Positions 51,528 to 64,000 of a DNA stretch of 64,000 nt are shown piece after piece. Under the pieces are notes generated by a model. The model saw only the letters and a program-made list of their open reading frames with translations, did no database searches and had not been told where the DNA came from. Every line of letters begins with the position of its first letter. The first letter of the stretch is position 1. Source of the DNA: Parapedobacter indicus (GTDB lineage Bacteria > Bacteroidota > Bacteroidia > Sphingobacteriales > Sphingobacteriaceae); NCBI RefSeq assembly GCF_900113765.1, contig NZ_FOQO01000008.1, positions 248,001 to 312,000 of the forward strand, read 5' to 3'. A program made the position numbers and the translations under genes.

Positions 51528-54500
51528 TTATACTTGGAGCTCCTGTGCCAATAAGCCTTTCTGTGTTGTTGCATCCAATGCTGCATACTCACTGGGTGAC
51601 TTGCCGAAATGATTTTTGAATGACTTGCCGAAATATTTCGGATCGTTGAATCCTACGTGATAAGCCACCTGGCTGATGGGCATGTCGCCTTGTGCCAACA
51701 ACTGGGCAGCTTTGCGGAGTCGCATGACATTAATCAGTTCAATGACGCTCAAGTCCGTAAGCTGCTTAAGTTTGCGGTATAAAACTGGACGGCTCATGCC
51801 TAACTCGCTGGACAACATACTGACATTGAATTGGGTTTCTCCGAGATTGTCTTCGATCATTCGGATTACTTTATGAAGAAATTGCTGATCGGCTGATGGG
51901 CCTTCAACCGCCTGTTGCGGAGCAAGCACGTAATCCCGTATAAATTTTTTGCGGAAGCGCTCACGAGCAGCTAGGATATTGCGGATTTTGAGTGTGAGCA
52001 CATCCGGATGGAAGGGTTTAGTGAGGTAGTCATCGCTGCCGGACTGGAGCCCCGTGATGACATTTTCCATGGAAGAACGCGCCGTAAGCAGTAGTACCGG
52101 TATATGGTCAGTAGCCATGTTCTGCTTAATATTTTTCAGCAGCGTAATGCCGTCTGCCTCTGGCATCATAATATCGGTAATAACAAGATCGGGCAACCGA
52201 GAGGTGACCAGTTGCCAACCTTCCAAGCCATCAGCAGCTTCCAGTACCGAATAGTCGTCATTGAGGGTTTGGGCTATAATTTGTCGGATGTCGGCATTGT
52301 CTTCTACGATAAGGACAACGGAGCGGTCCGTATTGCGGGGCTCCGCAGTAATGATGTTGGAAGCACGTAACGAGTCCGAATCCGGTTCAGGGGGTCGCAG
52401 AATCCGCGCACTATCGGCAGCTTCCGATGGACACGCGAGGTCCTTAGCGTCAACATGCAGGTTACCCAACGGCAACGTAACTGTAAAACAAGTGTAGGTC
52501 GGCTTATCGGTGCCATGATAACTCTCAACGGTGATTTCACCACCATGCATCTCCGTCAGGTTTTTAGCCAATGCCAACCCGATTCCAGAACCCAGTTGCC
52601 CCCGATTTTTCTCGTTGACCGTGTGAAGCTGGTAATAAAATTCGAAAATGGATTCCAGCTTGTCGCCGGGAATTCCGTTCCCATTATCCCATACACGAAT
52701 GATAGCAGATCCGAGAGGATATACCGGTGACGGCTTAACTTTTTCAACCATGAGTTGCACATTGCCCCCGACGGGTGCAAACTTGAAGGCGTTGGAGAGC
52801 AGGTTGTAAACTACTTTCTCCAGTTGATCAGCGTCAAACCATGCCTCTACAGGTGCTACCGGCTTACTGTATTCAAACCGGATTTGTTGTTCTTCGGCAT
52901 AATGCCTGAATTCAAGGGCGATCCGATCGATGAACGCCACTAAATTGTGAGAAGCTATGGCGAGCTGAAAATTTCCGCTTTCCTGTTTCCGGAAATCAAG
53001 TAATTGGTTCACCAGGTTGAGTAATCGCAAGGAGTTGTTTTTTACAGTCGTCATCATTGTCCGTGCGTTTTCTTCCAGCTTAGCATGTGCGAGCAGATGC
53101 TGCACCGGAGCAAGGATTAAGGTAAGCGGCGTGCGGAATTCATGGGAGATACTGGTGAAAAAGTTCAGCTTGATTTCATTGATTTCACGTTGTCGCTCGT
53201 TTTCCAGGTGCTCCAACTGCAACTCGTGTTCCAAACGGCTCCGGATTTTGGTAAATCGGATGATCATGTAAATGCCGACCACAATCAAGGCAGTGTAACT
53301 CAGGTAGGCCCACCATGTTTTCCAAGGTGGCGGCAGTATCCGGATGGTCAACGCGGCCGGGGTTTCATTCCAGATGCCATCATTGCTGGCCCCTTTAGCC
53401 AAGAGTGTATAGGTCCCTGCATGCAGGTTGGTATAGGTGGCTGACGGATTGGCCACATAATTCCATTGGTTTTCCAGTCCGTCTAACCGGTATGCATACC
53501 GGTTTTTTTCAGGCAATACATAATTGATGGCTGAGAACTCCACGGTAAAGATATTTTGAGCATAGCTCAATACGAGGGTATCGGTCATGGAGATCGGCTT
53601 TTTCAATACTCCGTCATCGCTGGGAACCACCGGTTCGTTGAATAGTCGGAAATCGGTGAATACTACTGGAGGTATATAGGAGCTTGAGCTGAAATCTTTT
53701 GGATCAAAGCACGTAAGGCCATGCGTGCCCCCAAAGATCAATTGCCCATCGTCAGTTTTGCAGTAAGCGCCGATGGAAAATTCATTGCCGCCAATGCCAT
53801 CTTTCGTATTATAGGACTTAATAACACCCGTTTCGGGGTCGACCGAACAAATGCCATTATTTGTGCTCAGCCACAATTTCCCGGCATCTTCCAATATGCC
53901 AAAGATGTTGTTGCCGGGTAATCCATCCTGCTCAGTAATCTGGCTGAATGAATCGGTCTCGTAATGGTATTGGTTCAGTCCGTTTTTGTAGGTACCAAAC
54001 CATATCCGTTGCTGGCTGTCTTCAAAGATACTAATGATGATGTTGCCGCCGATACTTTGGGGATCATTCAGCGAAAACCGGAATACCTCGAACCGGTCGG
54101 ACCCAGCACGTTTCAGGTTGAGTCCGTCTTCTGTACCCACCCAAAGGTTGTTGCGGCTATCGATAAAAACAATACGCACCAAATCGGAACTAAGGTGATA
54201 GCGGCCCGTTTTGCCCGCCCGGTAGCTTTCGAATTGCATGTCGGGCCCGGGGAGTTTGAGGTTGAGCCCACCTCCATACGTACCAAACCACATGTTTCCC
54301 CCTGCATCTTCCCGGATTGCGTATACATTGTTGTTTGACAGCGAATGGGAAATCGAGGGGTCGTGTTTAATATGCTGAAAGGTGTTTGAGCCTTTTTTCA
54401 ATACATTCAATCCACCGGAATACGTTCCCACCCACAAGGTTCCGTGATGATCAAGGTGGAGTGACTTGACATGATTGTGGCTCAATGAGCCTGGATTTTT

Positions 54501-55757
54501 TGGGTCGTGCTTAAAGTGTCGGAATACCTGGCCTGTACGATCCATGTAATTTAAGCCGCCGCCTTCCGTACCAATCCACAGCTGTTGGTCGGCATCCTCA
54601 AGAATACCACTTACCACATTGTAACTCAAACTGGAAGTGTATGGACTATGCGCATAATTCTGAAAAACGGGAATGTGCCTATCATATACACATACGCCGC
54701 CATAATAGGTGCCTACCCATAACGATCCGCGTGTATCCTGAAAAAGCGGCCTGATTGAATTATTACTGAGCGAAAACGGATCGTAATCGTTGTTGGAGTA
54801 AGTTAAAAAGCCCGTATCCTCGGCATAATAATTAAGCCCATTGATGGTTCCTATCCAATACCCCCCGAAGCGGTCTTTGAGGATCGATCGCACGTCGTTG
54901 CTTGCCAACGAATAGTCCGGTGCCTGGGGTTGGTGCATAAGATAGTGAAAGACTCCTGTCCGCGAATTGTATACATTGATTCCTCCGTTCTTTGTGCCAA
55001 ACCAAAATATACCGCTATCTAAACCTTGGACCACCCGCACGTCTTCGCTATTGAGCTCGCCGGGCCGTTTACGAAAATGCTTGATCAACTGTAGTGAACG
55101 ACCAGCCTGATATGGCTCGAAAACCAATACTCCGTTTACCGTGCTCAACCAGATATTTCCGCGCTCATCGTCATACAGTGACTGTACATTGTTGCATCCC
55201 AAGGGCACTCCCTGCGCACTATACATTGCCGCATCGAATACCAGGATAAGTTGCATGGAATTTTTCCCTTCTTCAAGGCAATACAACCCTTGCGATGTTG
55301 CAAACCAAACCCGGCCGCTTCGATCTTCTACGATGGCCGACACAATCGGTTCGGAAAACGTGTTACCTGACTGATTATTAACCAACGGGAACCGCTTGAA
55401 ACTATCGGAATACCGATCGTATAAACAGATGCCTGAGCTGGTACCCACCCACAGCCTGTTTTTACGATCTTCCAACAAGGACATGATGTAGTTGTCGGCA
55501 AGCGATGTGGTGTCCGATGGGGTATTCCGATAGGTAACAAATTTGCGTGCATCGTACCGATTCAATCCGTCACGCGTACCGACCCACATGAAACCGAGGT
55601 AGTCTTGGCAAAGCGAAAAAATACTGCTCTGAGACAGACCTTCACGCAAACCGATGCGTGTAAATCTAACCGATTTGTCACTGACCTGGCTTATCGCCGC
55701 ATCACCAAGCGACAAAAGTATTACGGAAATAAAAATTCGTGCAATGCAGCACATCAT
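51528..55757 (-). CDS. hybrid two-component system sensor/regulator (HTCS)
   Basis: This one-protein regulator senses glycan fragments in the periplasm and activates the PUL. The 1409-residue protein has a signal peptide, then two beta-propellers of Reg_prop repeats (for example GFMWVGTRDGLNRYD, RLWVGTSSGICLYD) to about residue 740. A Y_Y_Y domain (AYRLDGLENQWNYV) and one membrane helix (about 815-838) follow. The histidine kinase has ISHEFRTPLTLIL (His about 872). The receiver has LIVEDNADIRQ and phospho-acceptor Asp in LVITDIMMPEADG (about 1190). The AraC-type domain (about 1292-1395) contains SQVAYHVGFNDPKYFGKSFK. It lies 65 nt after the lipoprotein gene, so it is probably part of the same transcript. 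Confidence 0.96.
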   Translation of the reverse strand: MMCCIARIFISVILLSLGDAAISQVSDKSVRFTRIGLREGLSQSSIFSLCQDYLGFMWVGTRDGLNRYDARKFVTYRNTPSDTTSLADNYIMSLLEDRKNRLWVGTSSGICLYDRYSDSFKRFPLVNNQSGNTFSEPIVSAIVEDRSGRVWFATSQGLYCLEEGKNSMQLILVFDAAMYSAQGVPLGCNNVQSLYDDERGNIWLSTVNGVLVFEPYQAGRSLQLIKHFRKRPGELNSEDVRVVQGLDSGIFWFGTKNGGINVYNSRTGVFHYLMHQPQAPDYSLASNDVRSILKDRFGGYWIGTINGLNYYAEDTGFLTYSNNDYDPFSLSNNSIRPLFQDTRGSLWVGTYYGGVCVYDRHIPVFQNYAHSPYTSSLSYNVVSGILEDADQQLWIGTEGGGLNYMDRTGQVFRHFKHDPKNPGSLSHNHVKSLHLDHHGTLWVGTYSGGLNVLKKGSNTFQHIKHDPSISHSLSNNNVYAIREDAGGNMWFGTYGGGLNLKLPGPDMQFESYRAGKTGRYHLSSDLVRIVFIDSRNNLWVGTEDGLNLKRAGSDRFEVFRFSLNDPQSIGGNIIISIFEDSQQRIWFGTYKNGLNQYHYETDSFSQITEQDGLPGNNIFGILEDAGKLWLSTNNGICSVDPETGVIKSYNTKDGIGGNEFSIGAYCKTDDGQLIFGGTHGLTCFDPKDFSSSSYIPPVVFTDFRLFNEPVVPSDDGVLKKPISMTDTLVLSYAQNIFTVEFSAINYVLPEKNRYAYRLDGLENQWNYVANPSATYTNLHAGTYTLLAKGASNDGIWNETPAALTIRILPPPWKTWWAYLSYTALIVVGIYMIIRFTKIRSRLEHELQLEHLENERQREINEIKLNFFTSISHEFRTPLTLILAPVQHLLAHAKLEENARTMMTTVKNNSLRLLNLVNQLLDFRKQESGNFQLAIASHNLVAFIDRIALEFRHYAEEQQIRFEYSKPVAPVEAWFDADQLEKVVYNLLSNAFKFAPVGGNVQLMVEKVKPSPVYPLGSAIIRVWDNGNGIPGDKLESIFEFYYQLHTVNEKNRGQLGSGIGLALAKNLTEMHGGEITVESYHGTDKPTYTCFTVTLPLGNLHVDAKDLACPSEAADSARILRPPEPDSDSLRASNIITAEPRNTDRSVVLIVEDNADIRQIIAQTLNDDYSVLEAADGLEGWQLVTSRLPDLVITDIMMPEADGITLLKNIKQNMATDHIPVLLLTARSSMENVITGLQSGSDDYLTKPFHPDVLTLKIRNILAARERFRKKFIRDYVLAPQQAVEGPSADQQFLHKVIRMIEDNLGETQFNVSMLSSELGMSRPVLYRKLKQLTDLSVIELINVMRLRKAAQLLAQGDMPISQVAYHVGFNDPKYFGKSFKNHFGKSPSEYAALDATTQKGLLAQELQV

Positions 55758-55822
55758 AATCGTCCAAAGGCATTAACTTCAGTGCAATATCGAAAATTAA
55801 TGGGTTATTCCCAACTGGGATA

Positions 55823-56338
55823 CTACTCAATGGTTAATGTGCGCCGAAAGGCCGTAGAAAAGATATCGACGCGATAGTCGGGTGTAATGTTGTCCTCGAA
55901 ATTGATCTCTACCACCCGGGTGCCGGGCGCCGGATTGTTGAGCAGTTTGACATACACCGTATCTTTGGCTTTTATTGCCTGCGGAAATACGATGGAATAT
56001 TTACCGTTTCCATCCGGCTGAATGGCGTTTCCATCACGATCTACAATCTGGAAATCTTCGTCAATGACGGCGGCGTCAACGCCATCGGGTGTAACGACTG
56101 AATAGTGGGCAACTGCATCGTAATTCCTAGTAAATTCGGAATAAAACTGCACCGGGAATTTGAGCAACTCACTTTGGCTTCTGTTTACAGTAACGCCGCT
56201 GTTGTTGTTGGGTACATATACGATGTAATAGTGATGTTCGTATTCCGATAGCCCTGCGGGATAGTCTTTGTCTTCGCAGGCAGTAAACAATACGCCGGAT
56301 AACAGGAGCGCCGCAATTAATACATTTTGTGTTTTCAT
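55823..56338 (-). CDS. PUL surface lipoprotein of DUF4843/SusE-like type
   Basis: This is a 171-residue lipoprotein (signal MKTQNVLIAALLLSGVLFTA, Cys in FTACEDKD). The remainder is predicted all-beta, with IVYVPNNNSGVTVNRSQSEL, LKFPVQFYSEFTRNYD, EDFQIVDRDGNAI and the KDTVYVKLLNNPAPG segment typical of DUF1735/DUF4843 glycan-binding lipoproteins. It probably sits on the cell surface as a glycan-binding accessory to the SusCD pair. It is fourth in the locus, and its start codon ends the structured element at 56336-56423, which fills most of the gap after susD. Confidence 0.8.
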   Translation of the reverse strand: MKTQNVLIAALLLSGVLFTACEDKDYPAGLSEYEHHYYIVYVPNNNSGVTVNRSQSELLKFPVQFYSEFTRNYDAVAHYSVVTPDGVDAAVIDEDFQIVDRDGNAIQPDGNGKYSIVFPQAIKAKDTVYVKLLNNPAPGTRVVEINFEDNITPDYRVDIFSTAFRRTLTIE

Positions 56339-56423
56339 TAGAAAATAGTTTGTTCTTAATAGTCTAATGGAACCTGCATGTTCATCGCCTTGTTGTATCA
56401 GGCGTTGACAGGGCAGGTTTCAT
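56336..56423 (-). promoter_or_regulatory. duplicated structured leader element, copy B (before PUL lipoprotein gene)
   Basis: Copy B reads on the minus strand from 56423 to the ATG of the lipoprotein gene. It differs from copy A (33414-33500) at about 10 positions plus one single-base indel in the loop. The outer helix AACCTGC/GCAGGTT is identical. The inner helix is GTCA/TGAT, where A has GTCA/TGAC, so pairing is kept by G-U. The CGCC/GGCG pseudoknot potential, CCATTAGAC and the TATTTTCTAATG tail are also kept. It sits inside an operon, 17 nt after the susD stop. Confidence 0.65.
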
Positions 56424-56440
56424 TGTTCAATGGTTTATAC

Positions 56441-58108
56441 TTATTGCCAATTGGGATTTTGGACCACGCTGCCACCACTTAGGGTGACCTCATTGAATGG
56501 AACCGGATACAGGTAATCGCGGTCAGAATCAAACGACCGTACGTTAGTATCTTCCACGACCAATACCCCTTCACTGTTGATATTCAAGGTAGAGGGATCT
56601 GCGCCCACCCAGTCCTCTGCATCAAATTTAGCTCCGAGCAGCTGCTCTGGAAGCAGGGTCTCTGCAGTTTTCCAGCGGATCAGGTCGTCGTAGCGAAATC
56701 CTTCCAGGGCCAGTTCAACCGTCCGTTCCCTTCGTATTTCTTCGCGCATATCAAGGTTATTGACCTGAGCGAACGCATTGGAAAGGCGTGCAGAAAAGCC
56801 TGCCCGTTGTCGCAACGCATTGATGGTGAGATCCAGATCCGCATCGCTGAGGGAGCCATTCAATTCATAGGTTGCTTCGGCATACGTGAGCAGCACTTCC
56901 CCATAGCGGATGAGAATTTTATCTACAGTTCCGGCACCGTTCGTCTGCCAGTCTTCAATGTTGAACCCTTTTTTTGCAGCAAAAGCCGAACGTGATCCCA
57001 AGGTAGTCGTCGGAATCCAGGGGCCTTTATAGGCCTGTTCTCCGGCTTGGAAGAGCGTCATTGCCAACCGCGGATCACGATTTTGAAAGATCGCGTTGTA
57101 ACCATCCTCTTCGTTTTCCTCAATAAAATGTATGGAACGGGTTGAAGAAGGCTTGTTTAGTTCATTGAAAGCGGGCAGCCCATCCGAATAAAGATATTGC
57201 CGCACCAGGTTCCGTGTGGGTGCGTTGCGTCCGTTTTCCATGTCGCGGGAGTAGTTGTGTCCCACAATCAAGTTGGAAGGGCTTACTCCATAGATCTTTA
57301 CGAAGATGTTTTCGGTATTGTCCGGCCCTTCGGCCTCATGCTGAAACAGTCCATCATAGGTAGGGTACAATTGGTGTCCCTGATCCATCACTGCCTGGGC
57401 CGCCTGCACCGCCAAGGTGAGATGCGACTGCCAGTCGCCGTCATTGTGGAATTTAGCATAGGTACCTACGTAAAGGGCTATCCGGGCTTTTAGTGCGAGC
57501 GCGCTACTTTTCGTTACCCGGCCATATTGTGCGGTTGGCAGCTGCTGATGGGTGGGCAACCACGCCGCCGCAAAATCCAGGTCGTCATAAATCGCCTGGA
57601 TGACCTCTGCTTTCGGTGTGCGGGGCATGGTAAGCTCAGGGGCATCGGTATCGAGGGTTTTCAGGATCAGCGGGACATCGCCGTATTTCTGTATCAAGCT
57701 GAAATACGCATACGCCCGGAAGAAACGTGCCTCGCCGAAATATCGGTTCTTGATTTCGTCAGAAACCTGGGCCTTCCCCCCTTTTTCCAAAATATTATTT
57801 GCTGTGAAGATATCCCGATACGGGTTATTCCAGTCGCCGCTGGTATTGGGAATGGTTCGGGTACCATTACTTACGGAATTGGCGGTTTGGTTAACGTTGT
57901 CGTCACCACGGGAGTCTAATTGGAAGCCCGCCAGCAGTTGGTAGTGTCTATTGGTCGCATTCATCAGATCGGTCTCTGTATTCCAGAAATCCACATCGCT
58001 GAATTCACTTTCCGGAAAACGGTCCAGGCTGCAACTGCTGGCAATTCCTGCCAAGCAGATAATGGCTATCCGGATAAAGCTCTTGGTTTTATTGGGTTGT
58101 CTCATCAT
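56441..58108 (-). CDS. SusD/RagB-family nutrient-binding outer-membrane lipoprotein
   Basis: This is the surface glycan-binding partner of the SusC encoded directly upstream. The start at 58108 (MMRQPNKTKSFIRIAIICLA) leaves 7 nt after the susC stop. An upstream start at 58129 would overlap susC. The lipobox is ASSC. SusD features are FRAYAYFSLIQKYGDVPLIL, MPRTPKAEVIQAIYDDLDFA, the SALALKARIALYVGTYAKF helix pair and ELALEGFRYDDLIRWKTAE near the C-terminus. About 555 residues. Confidence 0.95.
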   Translation of the reverse strand: MMRQPNKTKSFIRIAIICLAGIASSCSLDRFPESEFSDVDFWNTETDLMNATNRHYQLLAGFQLDSRGDDNVNQTANSVSNGTRTIPNTSGDWNNPYRDIFTANNILEKGGKAQVSDEIKNRYFGEARFFRAYAYFSLIQKYGDVPLILKTLDTDAPELTMPRTPKAEVIQAIYDDLDFAAAWLPTHQQLPTAQYGRVTKSSALALKARIALYVGTYAKFHNDGDWQSHLTLAVQAAQAVMDQGHQLYPTYDGLFQHEAEGPDNTENIFVKIYGVSPSNLIVGHNYSRDMENGRNAPTRNLVRQYLYSDGLPAFNELNKPSSTRSIHFIEENEEDGYNAIFQNRDPRLAMTLFQAGEQAYKGPWIPTTTLGSRSAFAAKKGFNIEDWQTNGAGTVDKILIRYGEVLLTYAEATYELNGSLSDADLDLTINALRQRAGFSARLSNAFAQVNNLDMREEIRRERTVELALEGFRYDDLIRWKTAETLLPEQLLGAKFDAEDWVGADPSTLNINSEGVLVVEDTNVRSFDSDRDYLYPVPFNEVTLSGGSVVQNPNWQ

Positions 58109-58115
58109 TGTTCGA

Positions 58116-61100
58116 TTAAAAGGTAACATTCAGTCCAAAGGAATAAGAACGGAAAAACGGATAGGTGGTTGCACCAACATTGTTGCCCACTTCCGGATCA
58201 AATACGCTCATCACGTCGGTCGATTCCCACAGGTCCTGACCCGAAAAATATACGCGCAAGCGTTGGATTTTATCCGTCCGGATAGGGACGGTATAGCCGA
58301 GCTGCAGGTTTTTCAACCGGACATAACTACCGTTCTGTGCCCATCGGTCGGAGGACCTATAATTGTGTGCACTGGTCTGATACATACGTGGGAAGTATGC
58401 GTCCGGATTTTCCGGTGTCCATCGGTCCATATGAATTGTCCAAGGCATATCAGCGGTACCCAGCATGGGAGAGAGCGTTCCTTCGTTGATGAGGAACTTC
58501 CGCTTGGCCGCCCCTTGAAAAAAGATGGAGAAGTCAACGTTCTTCCAATCGAAACCCAAATCCAATCCATACGTATACCGGGCGTTGGTGGTGCCCAAAT
58601 AGACTAAGTCTCCCGAATTTTCGGGCGTTCCCTCACCCGCATTGATACTGCCATTCCCATCCAGATCTAGGTATTTAACATCGCCTGCTCCGGCATTGCC
58701 CGGAAAAAACGGTGTGACCACTTGTTCCTTATAGGCATTGTATTCTTCCTGTGATTGAAAGAATCCATCTGTGCGGTATCCCCAAACACTGTTGAGTGGA
58801 TAACCTTCGAGCAGCTCCACCACACCACCATTGCCGATCGAATTGCGTCCATCGTACCGTACGAGCTCATTTTGATTGTCGGAAATATTGAACCCTACCC
58901 GGTAATTGAATGCGTTAATCCGATCACGCCACCGGATATCAAATTCCCAACCCCAGCTTTTCAGTTCACCGATATTCATGGAGGGGACATTGATCCCTAT
59001 GATGTTGGGTAGGTTCAGCTGTGCGAGCATATCTTTATTACGTTTCACGTAGTAATCGGCCGTAAGGGATAGCCGGTCATGGAGGAACCCGGCATCGATA
59101 CCGATGTTCGACTGCTGTACCGTTTCCCACGTTTTCTGTGGGGAGGCCAGTTGGTTTTGGTAAAAATACTGCGTTCTAATATCGTTAAAGACAAGGTTGT
59201 TGGTCTGGGTAAGTCCGCTGGTTAAGAGTGCGATGTAATCATACAATCCAAGTACGGCACCGTTCCCTAATTGCCCCCAAGACCCTCTTAGCTTAAGTGC
59301 TGAGAGGATCGACTGATCCTGCATAAAGTTTTCCTGGTCAATACGCCATGCCGCAGAAAAGGAGGGAAACAACTGCCACCGATTTTCCGGCGCAAGCCGC
59401 GAGCTACCGTCGTAGCGGAAAGACGCCTCAAAGAGGTATTTTTCGCGAAAGTTATAATTCAGCCGACCGAAGAAAGACCCCATCGCCCAACTTTCAATCT
59501 TGTCGCCGTTAGTTTTGGTCAATGGGTCGGCAAAATTGAAGCTGAAGAAATCGTTGGTGATCATGCTTTGGGCACCCGCCGAAAACTCATCTTTCCGATA
59601 TTCTTCGAACGACGCGCCACCGAGCAGCGTAAAATTATGCGCATCGGCCAGGGATAGGTTATAGGTAAACACGCCTTGCAGGTTGTTATGATAACCCCGA
59701 TTCTTGGCCATGCTTTTGGTATTGGGGTCGTTTATGCGAAATCGGACCGTGTTGGTGGTCCGTCCGTACCACAGCAGCGTACGACTGTCATTTTCCATGG
59801 AATAATAGTCTTGGTTGCGCCATCCCGACAAATCAAAAGTCAACCCCTTGACCAAGTTTTGCACCTTGAGGTTGAGCCTTCCGGTAAACGATTCATACAT
59901 ACGTTGCTCCAAGCCTCCATTCTTTTCAATATCCACGGCATTGATTTGCAAGTCGCCGTTATAAGGTTGACCCGTGATATCTTCGGCGGGCACATATAAA
60001 CTTTGGCGGGCACGGCTACGGTAGAGGCGGTTGATGATTTGCTCTGTCCCATAAGCGTTTTCGTTCACGATGGAACCGATGTATCCTGCCACCACTTCCA
60101 CACTGAGGTACTTGTTGAGCTCCGCATTGATATTGGCCCGCAGGTTATACCTCGAATTATCATCCGGCCCATAGCGCAGCACGCCATCTCTTTTATAGTA
60201 ACCGCCCGAAACCAGGTAATTCATCTGGCTGGATCCACCATTTATCGAAAGCGTATGATTCTGCATACCATTGTATTTGTCCATCCCCTCTTTGAGCCAA
60301 TTGTTGTTGCCGAAGTACTCCCAACGATCCTGCGTAGGGTTAGGACGTACGGAGAAGTTGGGGTTGCTTACCCACTCCATTTGCTCTTCGCTGAATTCCG
60401 GATTTCCCGTCGCATTGCGGCGCGATTCGTCTATCAATATCTGTTCTTCCCACGAATTTAACCGTTGAGGCTGGCGGGCCGTGGCATTGATGCCATAATA
60501 GCTATTGAAGTTGATGCGGGTTTTTCCTGCGGTACCTTTCTTGGTAGTCACCAAGACTACCCCGCCTGCTGCACGAGCTCCATAAATGGCCGACGCGGAG
60601 GCGTCTTTTAATACCGAGATAGATTCGATGTCATCGGGGTTCAGCAGGTTCATATCCATTTGGATGCCATCTACGAGCACCAACGCACTGGTGGTGTTGG
60701 ATGAAGAGAATCCCCGTATACGTATACCGTATCCTTCTGCTCCAGGTTTTCCGCTGCCGCGGAAGACTGTCACCCCCGGCAAAACGCCCTGCAGGGCACC
60801 GGTTACATTGGCCACGGGCCGATTCACCAATGCATCTCCGCTCACCTGTGCAACGGCCCCGCTTAGGTTTACTTTTTTCTGGGTGCCGAATCCGACCACA
60901 ACCACCTCATCCAGGGCTGACACGTCGCTTTCGAGTGTTACATTGACGATGGTGCGGCCGTCGACAGCGATTTCCTGTGGTACAGCACCCAATTGCGTAA
61001 ACACCAACGTACCGGTACTTGGTGTCGAAATCCGGTAGTTTCCATCGTCATCCGATGCCGTAGCGATAGTGGTTCCCTTCACCGCTACACTGACCCCAAT

Positions 61101-61235
61101 GGCGGGCGCACCGTCCTGGAAAACGATTTTTCCGGTCACTGTAAGTTGAGACTGGGAATAGGCCATTTCCATCCAACATATTAACAGTGCAATCACGAAA
61201 CCGTAGTTTCGCTTTTTTGTAAAACGTTTGCTCAT
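58116..61235 (-). CDS. SusC/RagA-type TonB-dependent outer-membrane receptor of the PUL
   Basis: This is the import channel for glycan fragments. The 1039-residue protein starts MSKRFTKKRNYGFVIALLIC. It has a signal peptide ending near MAYSQ, a carboxypeptidase-like domain (GKIVFQDGAPAIGVSVAVKG) and the SusC box DEVVVVGFGTQKKVNL. The plug has IRIRGFSSSNTTSAL and SVLKDASASAIYGARAAGG. The barrel ends in SFGLNVTF. It has its own promoter (61277-61284). It is followed by susD at 7 nt, and the GH2-lyase gene ends 106 nt upstream. Confidence 0.96.
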   Translation of the reverse strand: MSKRFTKKRNYGFVIALLICWMEMAYSQSQLTVTGKIVFQDGAPAIGVSVAVKGTTIATASDDDGNYRISTPSTGTLVFTQLGAVPQEIAVDGRTIVNVTLESDVSALDEVVVVGFGTQKKVNLSGAVAQVSGDALVNRPVANVTGALQGVLPGVTVFRGSGKPGAEGYGIRIRGFSSSNTTSALVLVDGIQMDMNLLNPDDIESISVLKDASASAIYGARAAGGVVLVTTKKGTAGKTRINFNSYYGINATARQPQRLNSWEEQILIDESRRNATGNPEFSEEQMEWVSNPNFSVRPNPTQDRWEYFGNNNWLKEGMDKYNGMQNHTLSINGGSSQMNYLVSGGYYKRDGVLRYGPDDNSRYNLRANINAELNKYLSVEVVAGYIGSIVNENAYGTEQIINRLYRSRARQSLYVPAEDITGQPYNGDLQINAVDIEKNGGLEQRMYESFTGRLNLKVQNLVKGLTFDLSGWRNQDYYSMENDSRTLLWYGRTTNTVRFRINDPNTKSMAKNRGYHNNLQGVFTYNLSLADAHNFTLLGGASFEEYRKDEFSAGAQSMITNDFFSFNFADPLTKTNGDKIESWAMGSFFGRLNYNFREKYLFEASFRYDGSSRLAPENRWQLFPSFSAAWRIDQENFMQDQSILSALKLRGSWGQLGNGAVLGLYDYIALLTSGLTQTNNLVFNDIRTQYFYQNQLASPQKTWETVQQSNIGIDAGFLHDRLSLTADYYVKRNKDMLAQLNLPNIIGINVPSMNIGELKSWGWEFDIRWRDRINAFNYRVGFNISDNQNELVRYDGRNSIGNGGVVELLEGYPLNSVWGYRTDGFFQSQEEYNAYKEQVVTPFFPGNAGAGDVKYLDLDGNGSINAGEGTPENSGDLVYLGTTNARYTYGLDLGFDWKNVDFSIFFQGAAKRKFLINEGTLSPMLGTADMPWTIHMDRWTPENPDAYFPRMYQTSAHNYRSSDRWAQNGSYVRLKNLQLGYTVPIRTDKIQRLRVYFSGQDLWESTDVMSVFDPEVGNNVGATTYPFFRSYSFGLNVTF

Positions 61236-61341: not shown

Positions 61342-64000
61342 TCACAGCCATAATAGTGGGTATCGGATAGGCAGATTTCGGATTACTTCTTCTTCGGTAG
61401 GCTGATGTTCAAGGGATATCCACGTGCGCAAAAGCTCCTGATCGCCATACGCGAGCGCGCCCATGAAAAGAAACGGTTGGGCTACGGGCCAGTTATCCCA
61501 ATACATCACGTCTTCAGCATAGGGCCACTTGCTTTTATCCTGCACGAAAGGCAGCATATACTGTAGACCTTTACCGACTGAGCGACCATTGGCCATTGCA
61601 TCATACCAAAGATCCGCTCCCGGCTTCGAAAGCAGGGAACAAATCGTAGCCATGGCATCGAGATTGAAAAGTGAATATCCATAAGGCTTCGTCCGTTCGA
61701 TTTCCAACGGAAAGCTTCCATCTCCGGCCATCTGCTGGGGAAGCAAAACCGTTTTATACCGATCTGCACACTGACGCATCAGATTGGTATTTCCGGTATA
61801 ACCAGCGAAGGCTGCCACCTGCATAACCCAGCATGTTCCGTGGTTATTTTTTGCGTTCATTTCCTCAATGCCATAGGGGTGTGTCGTTAACCACGTCAGG
61901 TAATCAGCAAACCATTTTTTAGTCCCTTGACTCATCGCCTCGTCGAGTAACCCCGCCTCATCCAAAAGACCCAATGCCTTGGCTACCTCGATCAGGTGAA
62001 TGGTATCAATGATCCCAATACCTCGCCCTGTAACGCGGCCTTTGATAGCCTGCGCATATAGGAGTGAAGGGTTCATGCGGGTATCGGGATCGATGAACCA
62101 AGCAGACACATGCCGGAGCGCGTGTCGTACGTATTTTTCATCGCCGGTAAGCTTCCATGCAGACACCAATGCCCCGACAACGCGGCTGAAACGGATCATC
62201 GCCAAGCGATGATCTACAAAATTATCCGGATTGGAAAGCCCATCCCTCCGGATGTAAGGGCCATCGGGATGCTCCGGATCGGGCCACCAATAGTCGCCCT
62301 CTGAATAAAAATCGTGTTTGCTTCCGGCACTTCGGGCGGCAATGCTTGCCGTAACGGTAACCGGTTGTTGGGTAAGTGCCCAAGCTGCTGCTTCCATTGT
62401 CTGGTCGTGCAGTGTAGCCGTGATCATCTCCGCTGCACGCTGTTTTGCATCGGTTAAGTCCAATGGCAGAATTGCTGTTTCCAAGCTATCTGCTGCAGCT
62501 ACGGCAACCATCCGATCGCCGGTACGTTTTATGCGGATAACCGCGCGGCCGTTGTATGCCTGCACTTTACGTGAGCCGTCTGATGTGCCAAGATCGGCCA
62601 GTAACCTGCCGTCGCCTGCCACTGAAAAATAGATGTAATTTGCGGCATCAAGGCATAACACCCCTTGTTTATCACGCAGTGTTGCCTGAACGGTAACCGT
62701 ATCGACCTTTGCTTCGAGCATCTCAAGCCGTATGGATGCAGGAGCCGACCACTTGGCGGTCTGATAAACCTGCGTGATGTGATCTCTTACGGTAACACTG
62801 TCTTTGTGTGCGATTACTTCCAGCTTGTTTTCTCCTTCACGTAACAGGACCATCCAACGAAGACCCGCAGCGGGAAAATCCTGGCTGTCACGTTTACGAA
62901 TACCCTGACTTACTCCATTGACAAAGAGTTCGGCTTTGTCGCAATTGGAATAAACTTTTACCATCTTTTCCTCACCTTCATCGCCCCATCTGACCGGCCA
63001 GCTGTGTCCATAAATATGGGCCATGGGTTTTTCCGACCAATAGGACTGGAAGATATAATACGATTCCTTTTTGTTGAAATTGCGCTCCACTACTCCTTTT
63101 TGATTAACATAGGGTACCGGGTTTTCCGGACGGATGGGGGTGGAAAAATCCTTGAACGGCCAGTAGGCGGTACCCGTGAGCCAGGGCATCGTTTCCTGTT
63201 CCTTGAGGTGCCAGTCGATGAGGTTGCAGATGTAACTCTCGCTCCAATCGCCATCCTTGGATACACGCGCAGGGCCACCGAACAGCGATGCATCGCCTGC
63301 ACGCTCGTCAGCCGTGGTGCTATGCATCACTTCCGACAATCCCCTGTCGGGACTTTCCGAATGCCGCCGGGCATGGCTATCGCCCCCCCATTCCACGTGG
63401 AGGAAGTGATCGACCTTATTGAATTCAGCCTCCGTGGCCGTTTTATAATCTGTATAGATTCCCCGGTACCAACCTGCCCAGATGGAGGGCGAATAGACGT
63501 CGACAATATCCTTACAAAAGTCACATCGCCGGATGGCAGTTTTGCGGAGCGGATCCAACCAATGTGCCAAGTCGTTCAACTCTTTCATGAAGGTTCGGAT
63601 TTGCTGCTGATCGAACACTTCAAAGTCTCCTGGCCAATCGTTTTCATTGCCCAATCCCCATATAATCACCGCGGGATGATTATAATGTTGCTCAATCATA
63701 TTGGTAAGCATCCGGCGGGCCTGTTGTTTATACCGATCACCGCCGAGCCCGCCGCGGCACCAGGGGATCTCCTCCCAAACAAGAATGCCCAGGCTGTCGC
63801 AAGCTTCCAATACGATACGAGATTGCTGGTAGTGGCCTAAACGAATAAAATTGACCCCCATTTCCTTCATCATGCGCATTTCCTGCCAAATCATGTCTTC
63901 GGTCATGGCTGCCGCCACTCCGGCATGATCCTCATGACGATGGGTGCCTCGGAGCAATAACCGCTGGCCGTTGAGATAAAATGGACCTTTCCGCGCAAAC
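61342..64000 (-). CDS. GH2 glycosidase fused to an alginate-lyase-fold (PL5/PL38-like) domain, N-terminus beyond right edge
   Basis: This is a continuous frame of 886 codons that enters from the right edge. The first part is the GH2 TIM barrel, with RHEDHAGVAAAMTEDMI, acid/base Glu in WGLGNEND (near 63640) and nucleophile Glu in HVEWGGDSH (near 63385). GH2 C-terminal beta domains (RDKQGVLCLDAANYIYFSVA) follow. The last roughly 385 residues are an alginate-lyase (PF05426-like) toroid: YSEGDYWWPDPEHPDGPYIR, NNHGTCW (Asn-His pair, near 61840) and ERTKPYGYS (Arg, Tyr; near 61685). All the PL5-type catalytic residues appear to be present. Beta-uronide polymers are the likely substrates (inference). 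It is probably secreted; its signal is outside the window. Confidence 0.88.
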   Translation of the reverse strand, partial: FARKGPFYLNGQRLLLRGTHRHEDHAGVAAAMTEDMIWQEMRMMKEMGVNFIRLGHYQQSRIVLEACDSLGILVWEEIPWCRGGLGGDRYKQQARRMLTNMIEQHYNHPAVIIWGLGNENDWPGDFEVFDQQQIRTFMKELNDLAHWLDPLRKTAIRRCDFCKDIVDVYSPSIWAGWYRGIYTDYKTATEAEFNKVDHFLHVEWGGDSHARRHSESPDRGLSEVMHSTTADERAGDASLFGGPARVSKDGDWSESYICNLIDWHLKEQETMPWLTGTAYWPFKDFSTPIRPENPVPYVNQKGVVERNFNKKESYYIFQSYWSEKPMAHIYGHSWPVRWGDEGEEKMVKVYSNCDKAELFVNGVSQGIRKRDSQDFPAAGLRWMVLLREGENKLEVIAHKDSVTVRDHITQVYQTAKWSAPASIRLEMLEAKVDTVTVQATLRDKQGVLCLDAANYIYFSVAGDGRLLADLGTSDGSRKVQAYNGRAVIRIKRTGDRMVAVAAADSLETAILPLDLTDAKQRAAEMITATLHDQTMEAAAWALTQQPVTVTASIAARSAGSKHDFYSEGDYWWPDPEHPDGPYIRRDGLSNPDNFVDHRLAMIRFSRVVGALVSAWKLTGDEKYVRHALRHVSAWFIDPDTRMNPSLLYAQAIKGRVTGRGIGIIDTIHLIEVAKALGLLDEAGLLDEAMSQGTKKWFADYLTWLTTHPYGIEEMNAKNNHGTCWVMQVAAFAGYTGNTNLMRQCADRYKTVLLPQQMAGDGSFPLEIERTKPYGYSLFNLDAMATICSLLSKPGADLWYDAMANGRSVGKGLQYMLPFVQDKSKWPYAEDVMYWDNWPVAQPFLFMGALAYGDQELLRTWISLEHQPTEEEVIRNLPIRYPLLWL

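What the first reader, a model, noticed from the sequence alone, without database searches (positions are those of the whole stretch)
61342..64000. Glycoside hydrolase family 2 fused to an alginate-lyase-fold domain
Seen: one open frame with intact GH2 acid/base and nucleophile motifs and, about 385 residues from the end, an intact NNH...R...Y lyase site. Known: PL5 and PL38 lyases of this fold cut mannuronan or glucuronan, and GH2 includes beta-glucuronidases and beta-galactosidases. A single polypeptide that cuts a uronic-acid backbone and removes beta-linked sugars would suit an undescribed mixed polysaccharide.
Basis: partly seen in the sequence, partly recalled or inferred. Interest (0 to 1): 0.6.

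Follow-up and report, generated by a model that had tools for sequence, protein, structure and literature searches.

The report
Fused beta-glucuronidase and uronate lyase
A soil bacterium makes one exported protein that joins two sugar-cutting enzymes, one that snips chains of glucuronic acid by elimination and one that trims glucuronic acid from chain ends; the join is real, shared by a handful of relatives, and the same two enzymes sit side by side in many other bacteria, which points to one glucuronic-acid-rich food polymer.

Summary
The window shows the last 885 residues of an intact 1191-residue secreted protein in a Parapedobacter genome: a GH2 beta-glucuronidase (residues 23-821, near-twin of Parabacteroides merdae GUS, Z 49.7) run without linker into a PL38-type (alpha/alpha) lyase (826-1191, Z 34.7 to BoPL38). 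Both active sites are complete (GH2 E425/E509 and the uronate-reading N605xK607; PL38 Y876, D892, Q956, N1025, H1026, R1075, Y1081). It is no assembly error: the same one-frame fusion occurs in four Parapedobacter genomes and seven genomes of a second genus, with both halves under strong purifying selection. Elsewhere the halves are separate, often adjacent genes; the fusion deleted the stop codon and the lyase's signal peptide, probably once, with a later loss of the lyase in P. soli. New here: the two enzymes and a GH88 unsaturated-glucuronyl hydrolase form a conserved trio, found fused in all three pairwise ways (GH2-PL38, GH88-GH2, GH88-PL38) in different Bacteroidota. The trio would suffice to strip a (1,4)-linked glucuronic-acid polymer to monomers, so I favour glucuronan-like polyuronides over an 'undescribed mixed polysaccharide'. 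The substrate is inferred, not shown. New variant of known kinds; moderately interesting.

The parts
61342..64000 (-). Part inside the window of the GH2-PL38 fusion gene (residues 306-1191 of 1191; the gene start lies 917 bases beyond the window's right edge, near G000:C15:312917)
   Evidence: open frame; Pfam
62455..64000 (-). GH2 beta-glucuronidase half (residues 23-821; window holds from residue 306): TIM barrel, DUF4982, GH2 C-terminal domain 5
   Evidence: Pfam; 6d7j/6d1p 1203/1063 bits; VIA-align Z 49.7 to 6dxu, rmsd 2.0, 753 aligned
61342..62442 (-). PL38-type lyase half, (alpha/alpha) toroid (residues 826-1191)
   Evidence: PF05426 E 3.8e-89; 3nfv 37% and BoPL38 28% identity; Z 34.7 to 8bdq/9fi3/3nnb
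63643..63645 (-). GH2 acid/base E425 (GLGNEND)
   Evidence: E in 52 of 52 GH2 rows
63391..63393 (-). GH2 nucleophile E509 (HVEWGG)
   Evidence: E in 52 of 52 GH2 rows
63097..63105 (-). N605-Q606-K607, the NxK carboxylate-reading motif of GH2 beta-hexuronidases
   Evidence: meaning of the motif: PMC12243196
61840..61848 (-). PL38 N1024-N1025-H1026 (= BoPL38 N241, N242, H243)
   Evidence: role of H243: PMC13169297
61675..61695 (-). PL38 R1075 and Y1081 (= BoPL38 R292, Y298); BoPL38 H297 is G1080 here
58116..61235 (-). SusC-like TonB-dependent importer, next gene in the same direction
   Evidence: Pfam Plug and CarbopepD_reg_2; conserved next to the fusion in all fusion loci
56441..58129 (-). SusD-like glycan-binding lipoprotein
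   Evidence: Pfam SusD_RagB, SusD-like_3; conserved
55823..56338 (-). 171-aa probable surface lipoprotein, no Pfam family, follows the SusD in fusion loci
51528..55757 (-). Hybrid two-component sensor-regulator, end of the polysaccharide utilization locus
   Evidence: Pfam Reg_prop, Y_Y_Y, HisKA, HATPase_c, Response_reg, HTH_18

Best explanation
It is the only enzyme of a small SusC/SusD polysaccharide utilization locus: an exported two-headed enzyme whose C-terminal PL38-type head cuts (1,4)-linked glucuronic-acid chains by beta-elimination (H1026/Y1081 as base and acid, N1025/R1075/Q956 holding the substrate), and whose N-terminal GH2 head removes saturated glucuronic acid from non-reducing ends (E425/E509, N605xK607). 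Each lyase cut leaves a new 4,5-unsaturated end that the GH2 should not be able to take; a GH88 unsaturated glucuronyl hydrolase (beside the fusion in relatives, elsewhere in this genome) removes it and re-exposes ends for the GH2. The natural food is most likely glucuronan or a glucuronan-rich polyuronide (bacterial glucuronan, or the mucoric-acid-type polymers of Mucorales walls). Shown: the fusion, its spread, both folds and complete active sites, selection on both halves, the conserved trio and its three pairwise fusions. Favoured but not proven: a single origin. Inferred: both activities, the order of action, the substrate.
For: Fusion real and shared. Folds: model pLDDT 88.3, pTM 0.77, Z 49.7 to P. 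merdae GUS and 34.7 to BoPL38. Active sites. GUS type by NxK motif (rule). Purifying selection, dN/dS 0.052 (GH2) and 0.070 (PL) between two Parapedobacter. Partner genes: a full-length GH2 orthologue within 8 kb and on the same strand in 26 of 79 loci chosen only by the lyase, within 300 bp in 8; in a phylum sample 13 of 13 genomes with both have them within about 10 kb (coordinates; chance about 0.005 per genome, though the genomes are not independent). GH88 in 47 of 79 lyase loci and beside the fusion in P. koreensis and others. All three pairwise fusions of the trio: GH2-PL38; GH88-GH2 in at least 10 genomes; GH88-PL38 in 2. Known PL38 activities include glucuronan lyase (PMC13027841).
Against: No activity was measured. 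PL38 is multispecific (alginate, glucuronan, hyaluronan/chondroitin). BoPL38 H297 is glycine here and the lyase half is only 28-37% identical to solved PL38-type structures, so specificity cannot be read off. P. merdae GUS is very slow on pNP-glucuronide (kcat 0.088 per s, PMC6351562). This genome's locus has no GH88 of its own; GH88s of the right type lie elsewhere. Some related loci carry sulfatases, GH18 or a PL8-PL38 fusion, which would suit glycosaminoglycan-like polymers.
Confidence: 0.5

Rival explanations
1. The trio serves glycosaminoglycan-like polymers (hyaluronan, chondroitin, heparosan): PL38 cuts next to GlcA, GH88 removes the unsaturated uronate, GH2 removes terminal GlcA.
For: RiPL38 degrades hyaluronan and chondroitin sulfate (PMC13027841) and Amuc_0771 PL38 acts on GAGs (PMC11790493); sulfatases next to some fusion loci; a Parapedobacter relative fuses a PL8 to a PL38-like domain beside a GH88.
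Against: No hexosaminidase recognised in the fusion loci; sulfatases occur in a minority of them and not in the window's locus.
Confidence: 0.2
2. One reading: a mixed, undescribed polysaccharide with a uronic-acid backbone and other beta-linked sugars.
For: Some lyase loci add GH29, GH95, GH31 and PL6-like genes, so a fucosylated uronate polymer such as the fucose- and GlcA-rich glycuronan of Mucorales (PMC6433966) is a possible target there.
Against: Those genes are absent from the fusion loci; the GH2 reads a uronate, not a neutral sugar.
Confidence: 0.2
3. Terminal uronates of branched plant gums or arabinogalactan: the lyase strips a 4-O cap from GlcA and the GH2 takes uncapped GlcA, both acting on side chains.
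For: Chemically parallel to the PL42 Rha-GlcA lyases.
Against: PL38 members studied are polyuronate or GAG lyases; no galactanase-type genes recognised in the loci scanned.
Confidence: 0.08
4. Frameshift, assembly join or chance fusion of no consequence.
For: Most homologues are two genes.
Against: Same frame in 11 genomes of two genera, one GH2 clade, both halves under purifying selection.
Confidence: 0.01

Closest known systems
Parabacteroides merdae beta-glucuronidase (PDB 6dxu/6d7j) and Bacteroides uniformis GUS-3 (6d1p)
   Same: Same fold over the whole GH2 half (Z 49.7 and 40.9; 58-63% identity), same catalytic Glu pair and NxK motif
   Different: Those are GH2 only (814-830 aa); no lyase domain
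PL38 lyases BoPL38 (8bdq, 9fh/9fi series) and BACOVA_01668 (3nfv/3nnb)
   Same: Same fold (Z about 34.7), all probed active-site residues except H297 conserved
   Different: Those are free-standing; here 28-37% identical and fused behind a glucuronidase; H297 is Gly
PL5 alginate lyase A1-III (1hv6/1qaz)
   Same: Same superfamily, weak profile match over about 150 residues
   Different: Far more distant than PL38
GH88-GH2 and GH88-PL38 fusions found here in other Bacteroidota
   Same: Same three enzymes joined pairwise, third partner as neighbour gene
   Different: A different pair is fused; separate families of the phylum

Membership tests
GH2 beta-glucuronidase (GUS) | GH2 domain order (sugar-binding, Ig-like, TIM barrel) and fold | tested here: met
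   Pfam; Z 49.7 to 6dxu
GH2 beta-glucuronidase (GUS) | Catalytic Glu acid/base and Glu nucleophile | tested here: met
   E425 and E509, invariant in 52 rows
GH2 beta-glucuronidase (GUS) | NxK motif and upstream Arg that read the C6 carboxylate | tested here: met
   N605, K607 and R596 invariant; rule from PMC12243196, (that R596 is the equivalent Arg is inferred from its position)
GH2 beta-glucuronidase (GUS) | Hydrolysis of beta-D-glucuronides | not testable with these tools
   needs enzyme assay
PL38 | Sequence and fold closest to characterised PL38 enzymes | tested here: met
   3nfv and BoPL38 far ahead of any other family
PL38 | Active-site residues of BoPL38 (Y91, D108, Q173, N242, H243, R292, Y298) | tested here: met
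   all conserved; H297 is replaced by G1080
PL38 | Formal CAZy family assignment | not tested
   CAZy models are not among the libraries
PL38 | Beta-elimination activity on a uronate polymer | not testable with these tools
   needs A235 assay
PL5 | Closest and full-length similarity to A1-III-type lyases | tested here: not met
   only a 147-residue weak profile match, E 2.5e-8, against 7.7e-101 for 3nfv
Polysaccharide utilization locus | Adjacent SusC/SusD pair with a sensor-regulator | tested here: met
   window 51528-61235

The most novel reading that the evidence does not exclude
PL38-type lyase, GH88 and GUS-type GH2 form an unrecognised, widely conserved glucuronan-degrading module of Bacteroidota, whose three members have been joined in every pairwise combination; the lyase belongs to a PL38 subgroup (H297 to Gly, conserved EEVIRNLP C-terminus) of one common, still untested specificity.
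Probability: 0.45. Interest if true: 0.6.

Novelty: new variant of a known kind. Interest (0 to 1): 0.45.

Why it matters
Both enzyme families are known, but I found no report of them in one chain in the open library searched. The fusion, read together with the trio and its other pairwise fusions, is strong comparative evidence that these enzymes work on one substrate. It also supplies a ready-made single-chain enzyme for glucuronan processing.

Tried and rejected
Assembly or frameshift artefact: rejected. PL5 assignment: rejected in favour of PL38. Apparent ~400-aa extensions of GH2 orthologues in G227, G284, G290 and others: these are neighbouring genes in the same frame, not extra domains. 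Independent fusions in the two genera: not needed; the GH2 halves form one clade (support 97) and the loci share the SusC/SusD/lipoprotein/regulator order, though the lyase tree has three gut Bacteroidales sequences in the same group, so one origin is favoured, not proven. First structure model with 31 sequences had a poor TIM barrel (pLDDT 72.5); replaced by a 97-sequence model. Promoter and terminator scan: at chance level. Literature searches for a GH2-PL38 fusion found none (open-access papers only).

Full report
Observation. It ends at window 61342 and runs off the window's right edge. The window is G000:C15:248001-312000; in the genome the gene is complete at C15:309345-312917, 1191 residues, with a GTG start and a signal peptide. 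It is the only PF05426 protein found in the 6.16-Mb genome. The host is a Parapedobacter: two genomes of its genus have contigs of exactly the lengths of P. koreensis NZ_FNZR01000009.1 (270,595) and P. soli NZ_JAMXAY010000021.1 (78,804).

Anatomy. Pfam sees GH2_N, GH2, GH2_C, DUF4982 and GH2_C5 over residues 69-813 and Alginate_lyase over 857-1131. By sequence the first half is nearest P. merdae GUS 6d7j (1203 bits) and B. uniformis GUS-3 6d1p (1063 bits); the second is nearest 3nfv (230 bits, 37% identity) and BoPL38 (148 bits, 28%). PL5 enzymes appear only weakly with a profile. An AlphaFold2 model from 97 homologous sequences has mean pLDDT 88.3 and pTM 0.77, with the junction itself at pLDDT 87-96: the last GH2 strand (815-820) runs straight into the first lyase helix (822-848). 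Residues 23-821 match 6dxu at Z 49.7 (rmsd 2.0 over 753), residues 826-1191 match PL38 structures at Z 34.7 (rmsd 2.9 over 344-346).

Active sites. GH2: N424-E425, E509, R596 and N605-x-K607 are invariant in 52 GH2 sequences; NxK marks the hexuronidases of GH2 (PMC12243196). Lyase: the residues probed by mutants in the BoPL38 structures (Y91, D108, Q173, N242, Y298; titles) and H243 and R292 are kept (Y876, D892, Q956, N1025, Y1081, H1026, R1075), while H297 is glycine 1080. H243 and Y298 are the bases of BoPL38 (PMC13169297).

Not an artefact. Four Parapedobacter genomes (the three others 78-88% identical to this one) and seven genomes of a second genus of the family (61-64%) carry the same single frame with no stop. 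dN/dS between two Parapedobacter is 0.052 for the GH2 half and 0.070 for the lyase half.

Origin. In most other Bacteroidota the halves are two genes. Among 79 loci fetched by the lyase alone, 26 have a full-length GH2 orthologue within 8 kb, always on the same strand, 8 within 300 bp. Several family members have the two genes in the same frame, three bases apart. The separate lyases carry their own signal peptide; in the fusions the stop codon and that signal peptide are missing and nothing of note was added. The GH2 halves of all fusions form one clade (SH-aLRT 97), inside which lies a P. soli GH2 that has lost the lyase; the lyase halves group with three sequences from gut Bacteroidales or MAGs (support 95). 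All fusion loci share the order fusion, SusC, SusD, small lipoprotein, (GH88 in some), with the sensor-regulator after them where the fetched stretch reaches. One fusion event with a later loss is the simplest reading.

The trio. A GH88 unsaturated-glucuronyl hydrolase is in 47 of the 79 lyase loci and flanks the fusion in P. koreensis. In a phylum-wide sample, all 13 genomes with both the GH2 and the lyase (E 1e-125 or better) have them within about 10 kb (coordinates; chance about 0.005 per genome; genomes are related, so this is a guide only). In other families the trio is joined differently: GH88-GH2 in one chain with the lyase as next gene (L166, L167, L168, L172, L173 and further genomes), GH88-PL38 in one chain with the GH2 as next gene (L165, and a second genome of that genus, cut by a contig end). 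That every pair has been joined somewhere argues that the three act on one substrate.

Mechanism (inferred). The lyase cuts between (1,4)-linked glucuronates and leaves an unsaturated end; GH88 removes that residue; GH2 removes the saturated residues behind it. For a linear glucuronan these three suffice. Alternatives are weighed in the rivals: PL38 members also act on alginate (BoPL38, Aly38A), glucuronan (CUL-I, TpPL38A) and hyaluronan/chondroitin (RiPL38) (PMC13027841; PMC11790493), and some related loci carry sulfatases, fucosidases (GH29, GH95), GH31, PL6- or PL8-type genes. Natural glucuronate polymers include bacterial glucuronan (PMC10180729) and the mucoric acid and fucose-rich glycuronan of Mucorales (PMC6433966); the fucosidase-bearing loci would suit the latter, which is speculation. 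In this genome the GH88s of the right type are at other loci (C22, C15, C21). The close P. merdae GUS is about 400-fold slower in kcat on pNP-glucuronide than the B. uniformis GUS in the same table (PMC6351562), in line with a dedicated oligosaccharide substrate.

Verdict. It is a new combination of known enzymes, not a new kind of system; what raises its interest is the conserved, repeatedly fused trio and the testable glucuronan hypothesis.

Noticed in passing
L166 6123-9671 +, L167 4377-7907 -, L168 6120-9674 +, L172 4906-8451 -, L173 5604-8713 +: GH88-GH2 fusion proteins of about 1180 aa next to a free PL38-type lyase; at least 10 genomes in two other families of the phylum.
   Followed up: partly
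L165 7869-10145 -: GH88-PL38 fusion protein of 758 aa next to a GH2 glucuronidase and sulfatases; a second, contig-edge copy in G700.
   Followed up: partly
L175 5665-8919 +: In another Parapedobacter genome (G005) a PL8 lyase is fused to a PL38-like domain (1084 aa) beside a GH88.
   Followed up: no
L176 5466-8753 -: GH2 glucuronidase with a C-terminal DUF4861 domain, next to two PL38-like genes and a GH88; DUF4861 may be another uronate-related domain.
   Followed up: no
L132 9547-12006 -: Parapedobacter soli GH2 nested inside the fusion clade but without the lyase domain, in a locus with different SusC/SusD, sulfatases and a GH101-like gene: probable loss of the lyase half and change of use.
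   Followed up: partly
L022, L050, L070, L090 and similar: Larger loci joining the lyase and GH88 (often the GH2 too) with GH29, GH95, GH31 and PL6-like genes, suggesting a fucosylated glucuronate polymer.
   Followed up: partly
window 55823-56338: Small probable lipoprotein without any Pfam family that follows SusD in the fusion loci.
   Followed up: no
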